DNA of 41,587 nt, from the NCBI GenBank assembly GCA_020051675.1, contig JAGVQN010000023.1, positions 1-41,587 on the forward strand, in the 5' to 3' direction. Below are positions 9,022 to 25,418 of the stretch, in pieces. The notes below the pieces were generated by a model, which was given only the letters and a program-made list of their open reading frames with translations, did no database searches and was not told where the DNA came from. A program made the translations under genes and the position numbers. Origin of the DNA: Candidatus Brocadiia bacterium (GTDB lineage: Bacteria; Planctomycetota; MHYJ01; JACQXL01; JACQZI01). Position 1 is the first letter of the stretch. Each line of letters opens with the position of its first letter.

Positions 9022-9371
9022 TAACTTATATAGCAAATACCGTGCCAACTGCAGAGCAATCTGCCACAGAGACACAGAGAACACAGAGGAAACACCTGAA
9101 TATCATTTTAATCAACATTTAAGCCCATCAATCACTATTTATATCTATTAATCTGTGTTTAAATCCGTGTAATCTGTGTAACCTGCCTCGCCGTCAGGTG
9201 GGTCTGTGGCTGGTTTTGTTACGATAGGGTAACATCCCATTACCAAAAGGTGCTTACCCCTTATTACGTTACATAACGGTAACATTTCCGATAAATTACG
9301 GTAAAAGTCCGTATTTTTCCGTAACTCATTACTCCATGATTTATAAATAGTTATGTAAAGTTGCTAGGTAA

Positions 9372-10208
9372 ATGTTCACTCATCCCCGTGTTATATACTA
9401 TAGAAGGCTTTTAAATACCAACATTTTTTCCGATAATATAATCATGACCGGTTCGGTTAACCTTTTACTGGAAAAGGCTCAGAACATCAAACCATCGGAA
9501 GTATTTTCATACGAAACACAAGATTTTAGAATTCTTTATGAGCGCGAATATTGGGCACACCAAGAGACTAAAAGAGGACTCCAAAAAGCCAAAGACCATA
9601 TTGAATATCTGGAAACCAAGATTCAAAAACTAGAAGGTGATATTGCCTATCTTAAGAAATTATTCTTTGATAAAAAGACAGAAGTTAATCAAAAGCCCGC
9701 TACAGAGACTAACCCGACTGCAGGCGCCAAACCGCACGGCGCTCAGACAGGCCATCCAGCGCATCATCGGAAGATTCCTTGGCATTTACCGACTCAAGAT
9801 GTGATTCATTCTCTCCAAGAAAAAGATTGTTTTTGCTCGGACTGTGGCTTACCTTTAGTAACTTTAGAAGCAGAAGAAATTTCATATGAGGTTACCACGG
9901 AAACTCGCTACATTTTGCTGAGACACCGCCGGGGAAAATATAAGAAAACCTGTCAATGTTCTCACCCGATTGTAACAGCGCCTGGACCGGTCAAACTCCT
10001 GCCCAAAGGGCTATATAGCGCGGATTTTTGGATTCAGGTGTTACTGGATAAATACGCTTATAGCATGCCGCTAAGCAGACAAATCTGTCGGATGCAATCG
10101 GCCGGAGTAAATATATCTAATGGCGTGCTGACCGACGGCTTATCGCGTTTGTCACCGATGTTAAAACCGTTATATGACCTGATGACCGGACGGCAAAATT
10201 GCCTTTGA
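9372..10208 (+). pseudogene. IS66 transposase (TnpC), N-terminal part before frameshift
   Basis: Coiled-coil N-terminus, zinc-binding CFCSDCG..., ends PMLKPLYDLMTGRQNCL*. Likely true start is MTGSVNLLLEKAQ near 9444. Confidence 0.8.
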
Positions 10209-11058
10209 AAAACTGGTACATGCAGATGAAACCGGCTGGTGGAATTGGGCTGGCCAATATTATTTAGAAAGCCCTGGGAAGAAGCCTCAACAGTGGCTCT
10301 GGGGATTCTTCTCTCAATTATATCATATCTTTGTGATTGACCCCAGCCGTGGGGCAAAAGTAATCAAAAAGACATTGGGGCAAGGTCCCGAACAAACCAT
10401 CATTCCAACCATATTTTGTGACCGTTATCGAGCATATCAGACCTGTGGTAATACATTAGCTTTTTGTTGGGCGCATGTGAGGCGGGATTTTATAAAACTT
10501 AAAACGAAATACCCAACCGATAATCTTATATCTACTTGGGCAAATACATGGATAAGTTTAATCGGGGACATGTATGCTCTGAATAAGTTACGTCTGGCTC
10601 ATTTGAGAGACCCGCCAATGTTTGAAGCGTTTCAAAAGCAGCTACAAGAAGTGCTGGAGAAAATGCGGAATCTAATGAATCCAGATGTCTATCGGACAAA
10701 GATTCATTTGGCACAGATTAAGAGTATGCGGCATCATTGGTCCGGTTTGACTCTATTTATCAGCGACCCGGAGATTCCCTTAGACAATAATTTGGCTGAA
10801 CGTGCTCTGCGTACTCCGGTGGTAGGTAGGAAAAACTTCTATGGCAATCATTCCGACAGGGCGGCTGAATCTACGGCTATATTTTACTCGGTGATAGCCA
10901 CCTGCAAATTACATAAAATTGAGCCTAAGAAATTCCTGAAACGCTATTTAACGACGTATACGCTAAAAGAATCCCATGCTTTAACCCAAGAACAAATGGA
11001 ATCTTTTCTCCCTCATAAATATGCCCGGATTTATCCAGAAGATATAATCAAATCCTAA
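10195..11058 (+). pseudogene. IS66 transposase (TnpC), C-terminal part in the shifted frame
   Basis: Reading resumes as KIAFEKLVHADETGWWNWAGQYYLESPG... and continues through LDNNLAERALRTPVVGRKNFYGNHSDRAAESTAIFYSVIATCKLHKIEP, typical IS66 DDE C-terminus. Confidence 0.85.
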
Positions 11059-11126
11059 GATTTCCATACGGTCATCAGTGAACATTTACGTTGCTAGCGT
11101 AGAAGGTTAACTGTACAACATACGTC

Positions 11127-11156: not shown

Positions 11157-11486
11157 TCACCCCCACCTCCATATCCCGCCACCCCAGCTACGTGATACAG
11201 CCACCCCAGTTAGTCCATATACCCACCCCGATTAGACCATACACTCACCCTAGTTAGTCTATACACTCACCCCCATTAGTCTATATACCCACCCCAGTTA
11301 GTCCATACACTCACCCTCATTAGTCTATATACCCACCCCGATTAGTCCATACACTCACCCCCATTAGTCTATACACCCACCCCAGTTAGTCCATACAGCC
11401 ACCCTCATTAGACCATACACCCACCCCAGATACGTAATGCACCCACCCCGGTTAGACCATGCCCCCACCCCGGCTACGTAATATAC
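11157..11486. repeat. Noncoding tandem array, exact 22-bp period, about 15 units, consensus YCACCCCRRTTAGTCYATAYAC
   Basis: Units start at 11179, 11201, 11223, 11245, 11267, 11289, 11311, 11333, 11355, 11377, 11399, 11421, 11443 and 11465, plus a degenerate unit at 11157. A 22-bp period with TAG/TAA content puts stops in every frame. Confidence 0.95.
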
Positions 11487-11516
11487 CCACCCCTACGGGC
11501 GGTTGGCACCACCACC

Positions 11517-11706: not shown

Positions 11707-11735
11707 TTGACCCCGTTAGAGATATGTGATATACT
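11707..11735 (+). promoter_or_regulatory. Sigma70-like promoter
   Basis: TTGACC (11707-11712), 17-bp spacer, TATACT (11730-11735). Confidence 0.55.
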
Positions 11736-11792
11736 ATTATTAGAAACGACGGTCCTTATTAGAAATATTGAAAGTAAAATCTCTAACGGGGT
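11710..11792. repeat. 14-bp inverted repeat ACCCCGTTAGAGAT ... ATCTCTAACGGGGT
   Basis: Left arm 11710-11723, right arm 11779-11792, perfect. Confidence 0.9.
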
Positions 11793-11842: not shown

Positions 11843-12247
11843 GTGCGATTTAATATGTCAAATAAAAATAATCTAAACGGCTTCACATTAATGGAACTCA
11901 CTTTAGCCATTGTGATTTTGACCATCGGCATTATGTCGCTCATGGCAACCATCTTGCCGGCAATGAAACTGGAAGAAACATCAAGAAGTTTTGATATCGC
12001 CAAATCCGCGGCGGCCAATAAACTGGAAGAAATCGCCGGATATGATTTTAACAGCATCTGCACCGTATTCAGCGGGACTAATTTCGCGGCAGGCGAACTG
12101 GGGGACACCGCCGGTTATATCAGCATCGACAACTCAAATACGGAATTGCTTGATATAACCGTAACAATCAGCTGGTCAAGCACGGCTTTTCAAAACACCC
12201 CTTTAAGTTTACAGATGAAAACAATGCTCACGAGGTCAGACCAATGA
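11843..12247 (+). CDS. Type IV pilin-like / pseudopilin (GspI/PilV-like)
   Basis: Prepilin motif NGFTLMELTLAIVILTIGIMSLMATILPAM. Confidence 0.85.
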   Translation: MRFNMSNKNNLNGFTLMELTLAIVILTIGIMSLMATILPAMKLEETSRSFDIAKSAAANKLEEIAGYDFNSICTVFSGTNFAAGELGDTAGYISIDNSNTELLDITVTISWSSTAFQNTPLSLQMKTMLTRSDQ

Positions 12248-13044
12248 TTATGAATAAAACACGGAAATCCCCTAACTTGAGATTGCCGCGCCCCGTTGGG
12301 GCTCGTCCCGATGTCCATCGGGGCGAGGGAACAAAGAGACCGAAGCAATCTCAAGGTTTTACTTTAATGGAACTGGTTATCACCATGTCAATCCTGGCAT
12401 TAATATTAACCCTGATATTATCCATGTTTATGAAAACCCAGGAAAGTTTCGACTTCTCCAGCAACAAAGCGTGGCTCGAAACGCGCGCTTCATCGCTGAT
12501 AGACCGCATGACCCAATACCTGCCGGAATGTAAAATAGTTTCCGCTCCCGTCACCGGCACCCACCACGGCTCTATTACCATCCAGGTGCCTGTCCTGGTA
12601 ACCGGCACTTACTGGTCTGCGGATGGCAGCTCCATTAACTGGGGAGCAAAGGACCAGCTGGGCTGGACATTAACATACCAGTATGTCGTTTCAAAAACTA
12701 TTTCGGAAACCGCAACCGGTTTTGATTATAACGGCGACGGCGACCTTGGCGAATCATATGATTCGGGTGAAATCCAGATGGTCTTCAAAGATTCAGTCGG
12801 CACGGTGCAAAACACCTACTCCATAGGAAACGATATCGTAACTGTCCATACTAATTGGGAAAACGATTTAGACGGCGACGGCGCTCTTGACCCCATCTTC
12901 TACCGCGTCAACCAATCCGGAACAGAAAGCACCATTAACGGAAACAGGATTATCGTCAATTTCTTTATGATTACCATAGACGGAAAAGGACGGGTTATAT
13001 TCATGCATAAAAAAGAATCCCGAACATTAAGGAATCCGCAATGA
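12244..13044 (+). CDS. Prepilin-like protein (GspJ/PilW-like)
   Basis: QGFTLMELVITMSILALILTLILSMFMKTQESF; ATGA overlap with the preceding gene; DxDGD motifs. Confidence 0.85.
   Translation: MIMNKTRKSPNLRLPRPVGARPDVHRGEGTKRPKQSQGFTLMELVITMSILALILTLILSMFMKTQESFDFSSNKAWLETRASSLIDRMTQYLPECKIVSAPVTGTHHGSITIQVPVLVTGTYWSADGSSINWGAKDQLGWTLTYQYVVSKTISETATGFDYNGDGDLGESYDSGEIQMVFKDSVGTVQNTYSIGNDIVTVHTNWENDLDGDGALDPIFYRVNQSGTESTINGNRIIVNFFMITIDGKGRVIFMHKKESRTLRNPQ
12276..12355. repeat. Palindromic repeat element inside the pilin leader
   Basis: CTTGAGATTGC (12276-12286) ... GCAATCTCAAG (12345-12355) perfect inverted arms, internal palindrome CCCGATGTCCATCGGG (12307-12322). Confidence 0.9.
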
Positions 13045-16252: not shown

Positions 16253-17772
16253 GAAACAAAATTCATTTGTCAGTTGTTAGTTGTCAGTTGTTAGTTGTCA
16301 GCTGTTTGTTGTTAACAGGATTGTTAGCATTTGCATATATCGTCCCGTTGTCCGCGGATACCGTGACCTTAAAAAACGGCTCAACACTGGAAGGCATCGT
16401 CGTTTCGGAAGACGAAGAATCCATCATCCTTGATGCGGATGATATGAAAATGACCATTAAAAAGAAGGATATCGAATCCATTACCAAATCCGAATATATA
16501 CCGCCTTCGGAAAGCTATAAACCGCCCGAGGTAAAACCAAAAAACCCACTCCCCGCTGAGATTAATCCCGTAAAGCCTATTACACCCTCAGACTCAACAA
16601 AACCTGATTTCTCTTCAGATTCCGGCGCAAACAACATATCCGGAATCGCCTTAAGCGATGAGGGCAAGACTCCTGAACAAATAGAGATAAACAATCTCTT
16701 GAGGAAACTCGTCGATAAGAACGAAAAAGAACCATGGAAAATATCGCCTGAATTAACCGAAAAAGGAAAAAGCGATACCGCCTACCTAATATCACTGATG
16801 GCCTTACCTTCAAACGACGCCAATATTAGACGCTGGATTATTTACTCCCTGGGGCAGATAATGCAAAGCAGCAGTCCCGCCTTGGCGGAAACCGCAGCAG
16901 CGTCGGGAGAAAAACCCACAGACAATGAACAAATCATCAATGCGCTCAAATTGGTATTATCCGACCCGGATGAAATAATCCGCTCTGCGGCAGTGGAAGC
17001 GCTCGGTCATTTTAAGGCACCTGAAAAAACAGCGTATTTAAAACCTGCCTCGCCGGCAGGCAGGGAGGAAAAAGATGTTTTAGGACAGCTTAAAAACCTG
17101 ATGAAATCAATTATGGAAACGGATACTTCTGTTTCCGTCCGTTTCCAGGCGATTAACAACCTCGCCGCCTGGTATGATTTTTCCGCGATTCCGCCTTTAA
17201 TTAAAGCGCTCGGCAATGAGGACGGCACAATCCGTTCGGCCGCTTCAGACGCGCTGGTAAAATTCATCAACCTGCCAGAAGAAGAGCAAGCAAAATACAC
17301 AAACCCGCCTGCCGCCGAGGCAAGAATCACTTATGATATCATCCCGATGCTCCTGCCAAAGCTAAGGGAGGATAAATTGCTCATCCGCAAGGAAATACTG
17401 GCTATTCTGGGTAAGGTAAAGGATAAACGCGCCTTTGACACTTTAAAGCAATTGATTGCCGACCGAGACCCGGAAATCAGGATGCTCGCCGTGGTTGCTT
17501 TGGGAAGCATGGTGGATAAAGAGACCGTTGATGTATTGCTTGATATGATGGAAAACGACCCTGATAAAACAACCAGGATACAAATACTGCAGGTATTGCA
17601 AACCCTTAAGATGCAAGAAACAATACCGCGCATTATAGAACTCCTCAAAGACCCTGATAAAGAAATCCGCTATTCCGCCTCGCGGGCATTGCGGCAAATC
17701 ACCGGCAAGGCGCTGGGCGCCACCTATGAATTATGGAAAGACTGGTGGGATAAGCTTCAGGGGATTAAGTAA
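16249..17772 (+). CDS. Exported HEAT/PBS-lyase-repeat protein
   Basis: ATGA overlap with the previous gene; signal-like LSVVSCQLLVVSCLLLTGLLAFAYIVPLSA; multiple HEAT-like units (DPEIRMLAVVALGSMVDKETVDVLLDMMENDPDKTTRIQILQVLQTL). Confidence 0.85.
   Translation: MRNKIHLSVVSCQLLVVSCLLLTGLLAFAYIVPLSADTVTLKNGSTLEGIVVSEDEESIILDADDMKMTIKKKDIESITKSEYIPPSESYKPPEVKPKNPLPAEINPVKPITPSDSTKPDFSSDSGANNISGIALSDEGKTPEQIEINNLLRKLVDKNEKEPWKISPELTEKGKSDTAYLISLMALPSNDANIRRWIIYSLGQIMQSSSPALAETAAASGEKPTDNEQIINALKLVLSDPDEIIRSAAVEALGHFKAPEKTAYLKPASPAGREEKDVLGQLKNLMKSIMETDTSVSVRFQAINNLAAWYDFSAIPPLIKALGNEDGTIRSAASDALVKFINLPEEEQAKYTNPPAAEARITYDIIPMLLPKLREDKLLIRKEILAILGKVKDKRAFDTLKQLIADRDPEIRMLAVVALGSMVDKETVDVLLDMMENDPDKTTRIQILQVLQTLKMQETIPRIIELLKDPDKEIRYSASRALRQITGKALGATYELWKDWWDKLQGIK
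17039..17070. repeat. Same 'cctgcctcgccggcaggcaggg' element inside the HEAT-repeat CDS
   Basis: aaacctgcctcgccggcaggcagggagg, encodes KPASPAGREE in a different frame from the 36222 copy. Confidence 0.75.
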
Positions 17773-18035: not shown

Positions 18036-19040
18036 TCAGAACTCGTGCATGACGGCGATGGTCGTGCTTTCCCAGCCCAATAAAGTCATTTTTGAAGCCA
18101 TGAAATAAGCTATTACCAAACGGACCATCACCTGACGCGCGCCGGTCGGCCCGATAATCTGCACCTCAAACCCATGCGGAAACCCGGTCCCCGTCTGGTC
18201 AGCTATGGCGAATTTGGGAACGGTAACGGGAACCGTAAAAGTGGCAGTCTTATTCCAGGAAATACTGCTTGAACCGAATCCTAAAAGTCCGATTACGCTA
18301 TCGCTCCTCTCTTTTTGCATTACGTATAACGCGTTAGGGTCATCGTCAATATTATCATCATCGTCGTCGTCAATATCGTCGGTATCATATTCATAAAAAG
18401 CCGTATCTGGCGTATTGCGCGGAAGCCAGTAATAAGTGATGCCGCGTTCGTTATACAAAGCATTGGCTATTGTCTGGCGCGAAATCACCGCGGACATCGC
18501 CGTTATCTGCTCGTAATCTGCGAATTCCTTGCTCTGCCACCTTACCAGGCGCAGGCTGGAGGACCTGCCGCCAAAAGAGTTATTGTTGGGCGAAAGGTAA
18601 TAATACACCATCCGGTAAATATTCACCCTGCGTAGCGTACTGCCTATGGTCGTGCTGAAAGGGGTCATTTCCTGTATGAATAATAACGCGTTGCCGGTCC
18701 GGGTGACCGTGGTATCCAACCGGAAAGTGCCGGTTGAATCCACCTTAGGTAAAAGAGTCCCGGTAAGCACCGGATAGGCCGCTTCAATCTGCAACCTGCC
18801 CTGGTAAGCCACCCCAATCGAATTATTTTCATAAATCATGCGCGACTGGGTCACGTCCAGGTTAATCCGGTCTATCGCCTTCTGTCCCCATTCGGTCATG
18901 AATGAAGTGCCCTGCATAAGCTCGCTTGATGAGTTGATAGAAGAAATCAATTCAAAAGAAGCGATCATAACCATGGAAAACAAAGTAAGCACTATCATTA
19001 CTTCCAGCAACGTGAAGCCGCTTATTTTATTATGCTTCAT
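18036..19040 (-). CDS. Prepilin-like protein (GspJ/PilW-like)
   Basis: MKHNKISGFTLLEVMIVLTLFSMVMIASFELISS. Confidence 0.85.
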   Translation of the reverse strand: MKHNKISGFTLLEVMIVLTLFSMVMIASFELISSINSSSELMQGTSFMTEWGQKAIDRINLDVTQSRMIYENNSIGVAYQGRLQIEAAYPVLTGTLLPKVDSTGTFRLDTTVTRTGNALLFIQEMTPFSTTIGSTLRRVNIYRMVYYYLSPNNNSFGGRSSSLRLVRWQSKEFADYEQITAMSAVISRQTIANALYNERGITYYWLPRNTPDTAFYEYDTDDIDDDDDDNIDDDPNALYVMQKERSDSVIGLLGFGSSSISWNKTATFTVPVTVPKFAIADQTGTGFPHGFEVQIIGPTGARQVMVRLVIAYFMASKMTLLGWESTTIAVMHEF

Positions 19041-24524: not shown

Positions 24525-25418
24525 TCATCGCCCGGAACATTCGAAACGAGCCAAATCAACCGCTGTTTTTATGGTAGGATTGTCTCCGCAGACCGGGCAA
24601 TTGTCAGATGGGCGGATATCCACTATCCTGAAGTTCATTGCAAGCAAATCAAAGACAAGCAGGCGGTTAATAAGAAGTTTTCCCCCTCCCCACTCCCCTC
24701 CCACATTGGGGAGTGGTTGGGGGAGGGTAATCAGCTTTATCGCCTCGGTCGCCTGGATAAGGCCTCCGATACCGGCAACCGTATTAAGTATCCCGGCTTC
24801 ACTGCAGGTCTGGATAGCGCCGGCCGGCGGCGGCTCCGGAAACACACATCTGTAACAAGCTGAGCGATTCCCGATTGGTTTTTTATTGCTCACTGTTCCT
24901 TGCTCATTGCTCATTTTCGGCACAACCGTCATTACCTGCCCTCCGTACCTCAATACTCCCCCATGGATAAAGGGCTTGCCGGAAATCACGCAGGCATCGT
25001 TAATTAAGTACTTGGCGGCGAAATTATCCGTCCCGTCTACTATCACATCATAAGCACTGATTATCTTACATATATTATCCGCCTTTAACCTAAACGGAAA
25101 TGTTTCTATATCAATCTTCGGATTAAGCTCTTTCAGCCTTTCAGTTGCGGATTCAACCTTGGGCCTGCCGATATTTTGCTCCTTATGGACAATCTGTCTG
25201 GGGAGATTAGAAAGCTCCACGGCATCCGGGTCGGCGATGCCGAGTTTACCGACGCCGGCCCCGGCGAGGTATGTCATGGCAGGCGAACCCAGCCCGCCCG
25301 CGCCGGCAATTAACACTTTTGCGCGGCTCAATTTTTCCTGCGCGTCCCTGCCGAAATTCGGCAGGCGCATGTGGCGGCTGAACTGTTCCAGATACTCTGC
25401 TGAAAAACTCATATGCAA
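24525..25418 (-). CDS. ThiF/MoeB/HesA-family adenylyltransferase
   Basis: FGRDAQEKLSRAKVLIAGAGGLGSPAMTYLAGAGVGKLGIADPDAVELSNLPRQIVH; CYRCVFPEPPPAGAIQTCSEAGILNTVAG; CPVCG. Confidence 0.93.
   Translation of the reverse strand: MHMSFSAEYLEQFSRHMRLPNFGRDAQEKLSRAKVLIAGAGGLGSPAMTYLAGAGVGKLGIADPDAVELSNLPRQIVHKEQNIGRPKVESATERLKELNPKIDIETFPFRLKADNICKIISAYDVIVDGTDNFAAKYLINDACVISGKPFIHGGVLRYGGQVMTVVPKMSNEQGTVSNKKPIGNRSACYRCVFPEPPPAGAIQTCSEAGILNTVAGIGGLIQATEAIKLITLPQPLPNVGGEWGGGKLLINRLLVFDLLAMNFRIVDIRPSDNCPVCGDNPTIKTAVDLARFECSGR
24682..24727. repeat. GC-rich palindromic repeat inside the ThiF/MoeB CDS
   Basis: ccccctccccactcccctcccacattggggagtggttgggggaggg. Confidence 0.8.
24885..24914. repeat. 'gagcaatgagcaaggaacagtgagcaat' repeat inside the ThiF/MoeB CDS
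   Basis: Minus strand ATGAGCAATGAGCAAGGAACAGTGAGCAAT, encodes MSNEQGTVSN. Confidence 0.75.

What the first reader, a model, noticed from the sequence alone, without database searches (positions are those of the whole stretch)
12244..12370. Palindromic repeat element translated as an extended prepilin leader
The pilin 12244..13044 has a 38-aa leader before GFTLMEL, of which LRLPRPVGARPDVHRGEGTKRPKQSQ is encoded by an 80-bp repeat with perfect 11-bp inverted ends and an internal CCCGATGTCCATCGGG palindrome. Both ATG candidates (12244, 12250) lie before the repeat, and the next ATG is inside the conserved GFTLME motif, so the element is apparently translated and then removed by prepilin peptidase. 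The leader would tolerate such an insertion.
Basis: partly seen in the sequence, partly recalled or inferred. Interest (0 to 1): 0.65.

Follow-up and report, generated by a model that had tools for sequence, protein, structure and literature searches.

The report
Palindromic DNA repeat in pilin leader
A mobile-looking palindromic DNA repeat has inserted in frame into the start of a bacterial pilin gene, in the short leader that is normally cut off the protein, and related bacteria show the same thing in other pilin genes; such throw-away leaders look like a safe place for this kind of DNA to land.

Summary
Window 12276-12355 is an 80-bp element with perfect 11-bp inverted ends and two internal stem-loops. 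It supplies 26 of the 38 leader residues of a class III prepilin. Related, mostly intergenic copies lie elsewhere in the genome and in its order. The orthologue in the only congener has the same start site but a 10-residue leader (MIKSKTKCRG^FTL), so the window gene gained a net 84 nt in frame. No start codon lies between the element's inner palindrome and the cleavage site, so a functional prepilin requires translation of most of the element. Cleavage is inferred, but the genome encodes a prepilin peptidase.

Two further prepilin leaders in these two species carry palindromic inserts absent from the orthologue. Across 131 prepilins of the order, leaders hold 18 GC-rich palindromes (shuffles: mean 3.7, maximum 9), while mature parts show little or no excess. 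One leader in another family carries the same repeat unit. Other genes (MurF, PyrD, ThpR, SRP54, ThiF) also carry in-frame palindromic inserts.

The kind is known: intragenic REP/RPE "coding palindromes". What appears new is repeated, enriched residence in a cleaved leader, which also proves that an N-terminal REP lies inside the reading frame. Mobiliser and organism name remain unknown.

The parts
12276..12355 (+). palindromic repeat element (REP-dimer-like), translated as LRLPRPVGARPDVHRGEGTKRPKQSQ
12276..12286 (+). left 11-bp terminal inverted repeat CTTGAGATTGC
12345..12355 (+). right 11-bp terminal inverted repeat GCAATCTCAAG; its last G is the first base of the cleavage-site Gly codon
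12290..12302 (+). inner stem-loop 1 (GCCCC-GTT-GGGGC)
12303..12326 (+). inner stem-loop 2, containing CCCGATGTCCATCGGG (12307-12322); stands where relatives of the element have CAATGACnGTCATTG
12244..13044 (+). class III prepilin gene (N_methyl PF07963, residues 34-58); start at 12244 overlaps the stop of the upstream prepilin gene and is conserved in the congener
12355..12360 (+). predicted prepilin peptidase cleavage site Gly^Phe (GGT TTT)
   Evidence: position inferred from the motif
11858..12247 (+). upstream prepilin gene of the same operon, short leader MSNKNNLNG^FTLMEL, no insert
18036..19040 (-). prepilin gene with short leader MKHNKISG^FTLLEV; its congeneric orthologue carries a palindromic insert at this position (reciprocal case)
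24690..24716 (-). in-frame palindromic insert CCACTCCCCAATGTGGGAGGGGAGTGG in a ThiF-family gene (24525-25418), absent from the congener
17044..17064 (+). in-frame palindromic insert CCTGCCTCGCCGGCAGGCAGG (PASPAGR) in a HEAT-repeat gene, absent from the congener
11710..11792 (+). second, different palindromic element (14-bp inverted ends ACCCCGTTAGAGAT/ATCTCTAACGGGGT) just upstream of the pilin operon; the same end sequence terminates 9 prepilin leaders in the order

Best explanation
The 80-bp segment is a member of an order-specific family of REP-dimer-like palindromic repeats built on the unit GTCATTGCGAG-[stem-loop]-GCAATCTC. It entered the 5' end of this prepilin gene after the lineage split from its sister species. 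[Shown: family homology; absence from the orthologue; net +84 nt in frame.] Because it lies between the conserved start codon and the prepilin motif, most of it must be translated whenever a functional prepilin is made. [Follows from the sequence.] It lengthens the cytoplasmic, positively charged leader from about 10 to 38 residues and raises its net charge from +4 to +8. Prepilin peptidase then cuts after Gly38, so the mature pilin is unchanged. [Inferred: peptidase gene present, processing not measured.] Insertion is probably untargeted or weakly targeted. Prepilin leaders, being disposable, tolerant of length and free of a fold, keep inserts that purifying selection removes from most other coding positions. 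[Supported by the excess of palindromes in leaders but not in mature parts; exact cause not shown.] How the element moves is unknown.
For: The congeneric orthologue lacks the element, with an identical start-site context. Related elements in G000, G001, G003, G004, G006 and G007 share CTCGCAATGACNGTCATTGCGAG, with none in the genomes of the class and phylum outside the order; alignment of 11 copies. No start codon lies downstream of the inner palindrome. Mature-region dN 0.113 and dS 0.689 indicate a conserved gene. A prepilin peptidase is present, C48:406-777, E 2e-18. Prepilin C101:14373 has leader MMKLKRKNALRCPSWRQG against MIKLKQKDG in G001; a G001 prepilin has MKYNKISGQLRQRRPASPKRGERVEAG against MKHNKISG in the window. 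The three inserts each add about +4 net charge. Over 131 prepilins, leaders hold 18 palindromes (shuffle mean 3.7, max 9) and mature parts 51 (mean 39.9); at arms of 7 bp or more, 9 against 0.9 and 10 against 9.2. A leader in another family (G006:C212) carries the same unit, GTCATTGCGAG...GAAGCAATCTC. Inserts in conserved genes keep frame; one frame-changing candidate was found.
Against: No protein or processing data. The genome is a 57% complete metagenome assembly with no reads to check. No target-site duplication is resolvable (sister species too diverged; 84 nt gained against 80 bp of element). No transposase is linked to the family. The window copy is a chimera: its centre differs from all relatives, so it is not a clean recent copy. 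Four of the 13 palindrome-bearing leaders are in one genome (G004) and look related; without G004 the excess remains (13 against 3.1), but the arms-7 result weakens (5 against 0.7, max 4). Prepilin leaders are generally variable, so weak constraint alone may explain the pattern.
Confidence: 0.78

Rival explanations
1. The element is kept because it is useful: a stable mRNA hairpin 32 nt after the start codon of the second pilin gene tunes translation or mRNA decay and so sets the ratio of the two pilins; the encoded residues are a by-product.
For: Very stable fold, -41.2 kcal/mol; position between two pilin genes whose stop and start overlap; REPs are known to act on mRNA (general knowledge; PMC3733652).
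Against: Absent from the congener's orthologous operon; inserts in other leaders have unrelated sequences and strengths; similar inserts lie deep inside enzymes, where no such role is expected.
Confidence: 0.1
2. The element is not translated: ribosomes initiate downstream or hop over it, as in the byp elements of Magnusiomyces mitochondria.
For: Untranslated palindromic inserts are known in yeast mitochondria (cited in PMC6649704); many N-terminal REPs are thought to be misannotated extragenic ones (PMC3733652).
Against: No ATG, GTG or TTG between the inner palindrome and the prepilin motif; the next ATG lies inside GFTLME and would destroy the signal; inserts in conserved genes are almost all multiples of three with open frames, which hopping would not require.
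Confidence: 0.05
3. Assembly artefact or dead gene: the repeat was joined in by the assembler, or the gene is already a pseudogene.
For: Fragmented 57% complete assembly; repeats invite mis-assembly.
Against: The copy is unique in sequence and differs from every other copy, so it is not a collapsed repeat; the frame is intact through 266 codons with dN/dS about 0.16; the same phenomenon recurs in independent genomes.
Confidence: 0.04
4. The palindrome arose in place by template switching during replication and is not a dispersed element.
For: No target-site duplication and no linked transposase found; palindromes of many sequences occur in the genome.
Against: End to end the segment aligns with dispersed copies in several genomes, and CCCGATGTCCATCGGG recurs 10-45 times per genome in some relatives and 0 times in others, which requires copying of a particular sequence.
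Confidence: 0.03

Closest known systems
Rickettsia palindromic elements (RPE) and Wolbachia palindromic elements, 'protein-coding palindromes' (Ogata/Claverie; reviewed in PMC2229807 and PMC10969869)
   Same: Palindromic repeats inserted in frame into unrelated, conserved protein genes, translated and tolerated; lineage-specific families; transposase unknown.
   Different: Different hosts and no known sequence relation; shorter (80 bp against 105-150 bp); here residence in a proteolytically removed leader is recurrent and enriched, which I did not find described for RPE in the papers searched.
CGTC-tagged REP superfamily (PMC3733652)
   Same: Family relatives carry an NGTC head followed by a stem starting AT; dimers in head-to-head order; found inside ORFs, dimers encoding 20-30 aa; not linked to RAYT genes.
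   Different: The unit holds an additional variable inner stem-loop; the window copy has lost the GTC heads, replaced by CCCGATGTCCATCGGG; membership by consensus was not tested against their models.
REPINs with RAYT transposases (PMC3116915)
   Same: Two REP-like units in inverted orientation that fold into one hairpin structure.
   Different: No Y1_Tnp gene is flanked by the unit in any of eight genomes searched; about ten head-joined dimers in 1.2 Mb rather than hundreds; copies enter genes.
Coding palindromes of Nematomorpha mitochondria (PMC6649704)
   Same: Stable inverted repeats within reading frames.
   Different: Those are long perfect repeats maintained in place; these are short dispersed repeats.

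Membership tests
Intragenic coding palindromic repeat (RPE-like class) | palindromic repeat in frame within a conserved protein gene and absent from orthologues | tested here: met
Intragenic coding palindromic repeat (RPE-like class) | other copies in unrelated genes and in intergenic DNA | tested here: met
   related units are intergenic; same unit in the G006:C212 leader; its inner palindrome in MurF and ThpR
Intragenic coding palindromic repeat (RPE-like class) | insert is translated in vivo | not testable with these tools
   only forced by start-codon position
Rickettsia RPE families proper | sequence homology to RPE-1 to RPE-10 | not tested
   no RPE models on hand
REPIN/RAYT | inverted REP doublet folding as a hairpin | tested here: met
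REPIN/RAYT | RAYT (Y1_Tnp) gene flanked by the same REP | tested here: not met
   13 Y1_Tnp loci from eight genomes searched, none with GTCATTGCGAG in the flanks; own genome only 57% complete
CGTC-tagged REP | CGTC tetranucleotide at one end of the unit | tested here: inconclusive
   family relatives have NGTCATTGCGAG at the dimer junction; window copy lacks it
MITE | terminal inverted repeats | tested here: met
   11 bp, 100%
MITE | target-site duplication | tested here: inconclusive
   none visible; congener too diverged
MITE | autonomous element with the same ends | tested here: inconclusive
   only Y1_Tnp transposases were searched; the nearby IS66 was not compared end to end
Class III prepilin | G^F[TS]LxE motif plus hydrophobic stretch | tested here: met
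   PF07963 E 1.1e-6, above cut-off

The most novel reading that the evidence does not exclude
Prepilin leaders in this bacterial order are a recurrent refuge, perhaps a preferred landing site, for several unrelated palindromic element families. The GTCATTGCGAG family, the CCCG...CGGG palindromes and the CCCGTTAGA...TCTAACGGG family all sit there, and in nine prepilins an element end (TCTAACGGGG) supplies the last leader residues, in most of them including the cleavage-site Gly. Mobile DNA thereby builds and lengthens a cleavable signal without touching the mature protein.
Probability: 0.5. Interest if true: 0.62.

Novelty: new variant of a known kind. Interest (0 to 1): 0.5.

Why it matters
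Surveys of intragenic REPs set aside many N-terminal cases because translation might start downstream (PMC3733652). A prepilin leader removes that doubt: the processing motif lies downstream and no start codon lies between it and the palindrome. The case therefore gives a clean, testable example of palindromic DNA that is translated and then discarded. It suggests that signal sequences removed from the mature protein are a safe harbour where mobile DNA survives inside genes. It also warns that long or odd prepilin leaders in metagenome genomes may be element-derived rather than functional.

Tried and rejected
Naming the organism: a genome-contig scan with the pilin found nothing and one with a PorA-like protein gave only 52-63% hits in many phyla, so the lineage is unnamed. 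RAYT linkage: looked for and not found; the C94 Y1_Tnp gene has its own flanking hairpins (CCCCGCCTGTAAAGGCGGGG) and no unit. Rfam: no family matches the element, only a tRNA elsewhere. A pattern for the element's right end within 30 nt of a prepilin motif, over all 23 held genomes of the class, found only the window; the G006:C212 case has a longer gap. Literature: no paper in the library holds the terms prepilin, palindromic, repeat, insertion, leader and REP sequences together, and sequence strings gave nothing relevant. The Fisher test of 3/6 prepilins against 8/227 other genes (p 0.0015) is not relied on, because several stretches were chosen for containing palindromes; the 131-prepilin set is the unbiased one.

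Full report
CHECK OF THE OBSERVATION. The window is contig C21 of a 1.2-Mb, 57% complete metagenome-assembled genome (G000). The pilin ORF 12244..13044 encodes MIMNKTRKSPN-LRLPRPVGARPDVHRGEGTKRPKQSQ-G^FTLMELVITM... and matches the prepilin motif PF07963. The element 12276-12355 has perfect 11-bp inverted ends and folds into a closed structure with two inner hairpins, far more stable than shuffles. Two of the three frames are open on each strand; the frame used is one of them. In-frame starts upstream of the prepilin motif are ATG 12244, ATG 12250 and two TTG codons in the element's left arm; none lies after the inner palindrome.

THE EMPTY SITE. The only congener held (G001, 97% complete) has the same operon. 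Sequence up to and including the start (ACGAGGTCAGACCAATGATTA) is identical, but its leader is MIKSKTKCRG^FTLTEL. The rest of the gene is 79% identical in protein. The window gene therefore has a net 84-nt (28-codon) gain. The 80-bp element accounts for all but 4 nt; divergence hides any target duplication. The mature part shows dN 0.113 and dS 0.689, so the gene is under constraint, though most of that history may predate the insertion.

THE FAMILY. Relatives of the element occur at C73 (two), C80, C69, C96, C29 and C55 of G000 and in G001, G003, G004, G006 and G007. Their common plan is AGATTGCCACG-[stem-loop]-CTCGCAATGACnGTCATTGCGAG-[stem-loop]-GACCGAAGCAATCT, that is, two inverted units GTCATTGCGAG...GCAATCT joined head to head. 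The window copy matches the left half of the C80/C96/G001-C22 type and the right half of the C73 type. Its centre CAATGACnGTCATTG is replaced by TCCCGATGTCCATCGGGG. The junction motif is present in six of nine genomes of the order and in none of the 90 other genomes of the class and phylum. The short palindrome CCCGATGTCCATCGGG is also dispersed on its own: 10 copies in G000, 45 in G005, 18 in G006, 14 in G007, 13 in G008, 6 in G003, none in G001, G002 or G004, one in the 90 more distant genomes, zero for the reversed control.

PALINDROMES INSIDE GENES. I compared 0.35 Mb of G000 with 1.23 Mb of G001 (233 reciprocal ORF pairs, 47,391 aligned residues). In-frame palindromic insertions relative to the orthologue lie in ThpR (KPACPDVHRGAG), PyrD (39 residues), SRP54 (18 residues), ThiF (window 24690-24716), a HEAT-repeat gene (window 17044-17064) and a few more. 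MurF in G000 carries one by inspection. In-frame matches in other genomes of the order include MnmE-, NuoF- and MutB-like genes (names are my reading). A search for frame-changing insertions in the same pairs gave one candidate. This in-frame bias argues for translation and against ribosome hopping.

PREPILIN LEADERS. Two more leaders in the two species carry inserts. G000 C101 has MMKLKRKNALRCPSWRQG^LTLIEL against MIKLKQKDG^LTLIEL in G001. G001 C1 has MKYNKISGQLRQRRPASPKRGERVEAG^LTLVEM against MKHNKISG^FTLLEV in the window. I then took all PF07963 hits in nine genomes of the order irrespective of palindromes (138 hits, 131 usable). Leaders measured from the nearest ATG (5,187 bp) hold 18 GC-rich palindromes in 13 genes; shuffles average 3.7 with a maximum of 9. 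Mature parts (51,636 bp) hold 51 against 39.9. With arms of at least 7 bp the figures are 9 against 0.9 and 10 against 9.2. In 12 of the 13 no start codon lies after the palindrome. Leaders with palindromes are 14-59 residues long; those without have a median of 9. G006:C212 carries a single copy of the same repeat unit (GTCATTGCGAG-ATTCCCGGCGCGGCGGGAA-ACGAAGCAATCTC) in its leader. Four G004 cases look related to each other; without them the excess stands at 13 against 3.1.

A SECOND FAMILY. Just upstream of the pilin operon, 11710-11792 is another element with ends ACCCCGTTAGAGAT/ATCTCTAACGGGGT. Five similar elements occur in the G001 sample. Nine prepilin leaders in G004, G006, G007 and G008 end at the cleavage site with TCTAACGGGG or a one-base variant (mostly Leu-Thr-Gly), and in G008:C172 both ends of the element lie within the leader. 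I treat this as a lead.

MECHANISM. The leader stays in the cytoplasm, is hydrophilic, varies in length and is cut off by prepilin peptidase (PMC10191384). A peptidase gene is present. The three inserts raise the leader's net charge by about 4 each, which fits the positive-inside rule. The simplest account is random insertion followed by survival where the product is unharmed. Mobilisation is unexplained: none of 13 Y1_Tnp loci from eight genomes is flanked by the unit, as reported for CGTC-REPs in general (PMC3733652).

COMPARISON AND NOVELTY. Intragenic palindromic repeats are known as RPE/WPE and as GTAG/CGTC REPs. The window element works like these. It is not a REPIN with a RAYT on the evidence here, and membership of the CGTC superfamily is open. 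What I did not find reported in the searchable library is recurrent residence in prepilin leaders, where the downstream processing motif settles the start-codon doubt that made earlier authors set aside N-terminal REPs. The finding is real, well supported, and a new variant of a known kind.

LIMITS.

Noticed in passing
window 11710-11792: A second palindromic element (ends ACCCCGTTAGAGAT/ATCTCTAACGGGGT) lies just upstream of the pilin operon; its end sequence TCTAACGGGG terminates nine prepilin leaders in related genomes at or next to the cleavage Gly.
   Followed up: partly
window 9363-11094: An IS66-family transposase split into two ORFs (9372-10208, 10333-11058), apparently broken, with 27-nt inverted flanks of 81% complementarity.
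   Followed up: partly
window 11179-11493: A 22-bp tandem repeat array of about 14 copies (CCACCCCAGTTAGTCCATACAC) between the IS66 element and the pilin operon.
   Followed up: no
L207:4236-4595 (G000 C79): PyrD fragment with a 39-residue in-frame insert made of several GC palindromes directly before the conserved IIGIGG motif.
   Followed up: partly
L120:1321-1440 (G000 C94): A lipoprotein-like signal peptide whose N-region contains GTCCCGACCGAAACGTCGGGG, which may be a Sec-type counterpart of the prepilin cases; no orthologue was found in the G001 sample.
   Followed up: partly
L396 (G007 C9:1547): A prepilin leader of 36 residues containing three separate GC palindromes.
   Followed up: no
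L120:132-656 (G000 C94): IS200/IS605-like TnpA gene flanked by near-identical hairpins CCCCGCCTGTAAAGGCGGGG and CCACGCCTGTAAAGGCGTGG.
   Followed up: no
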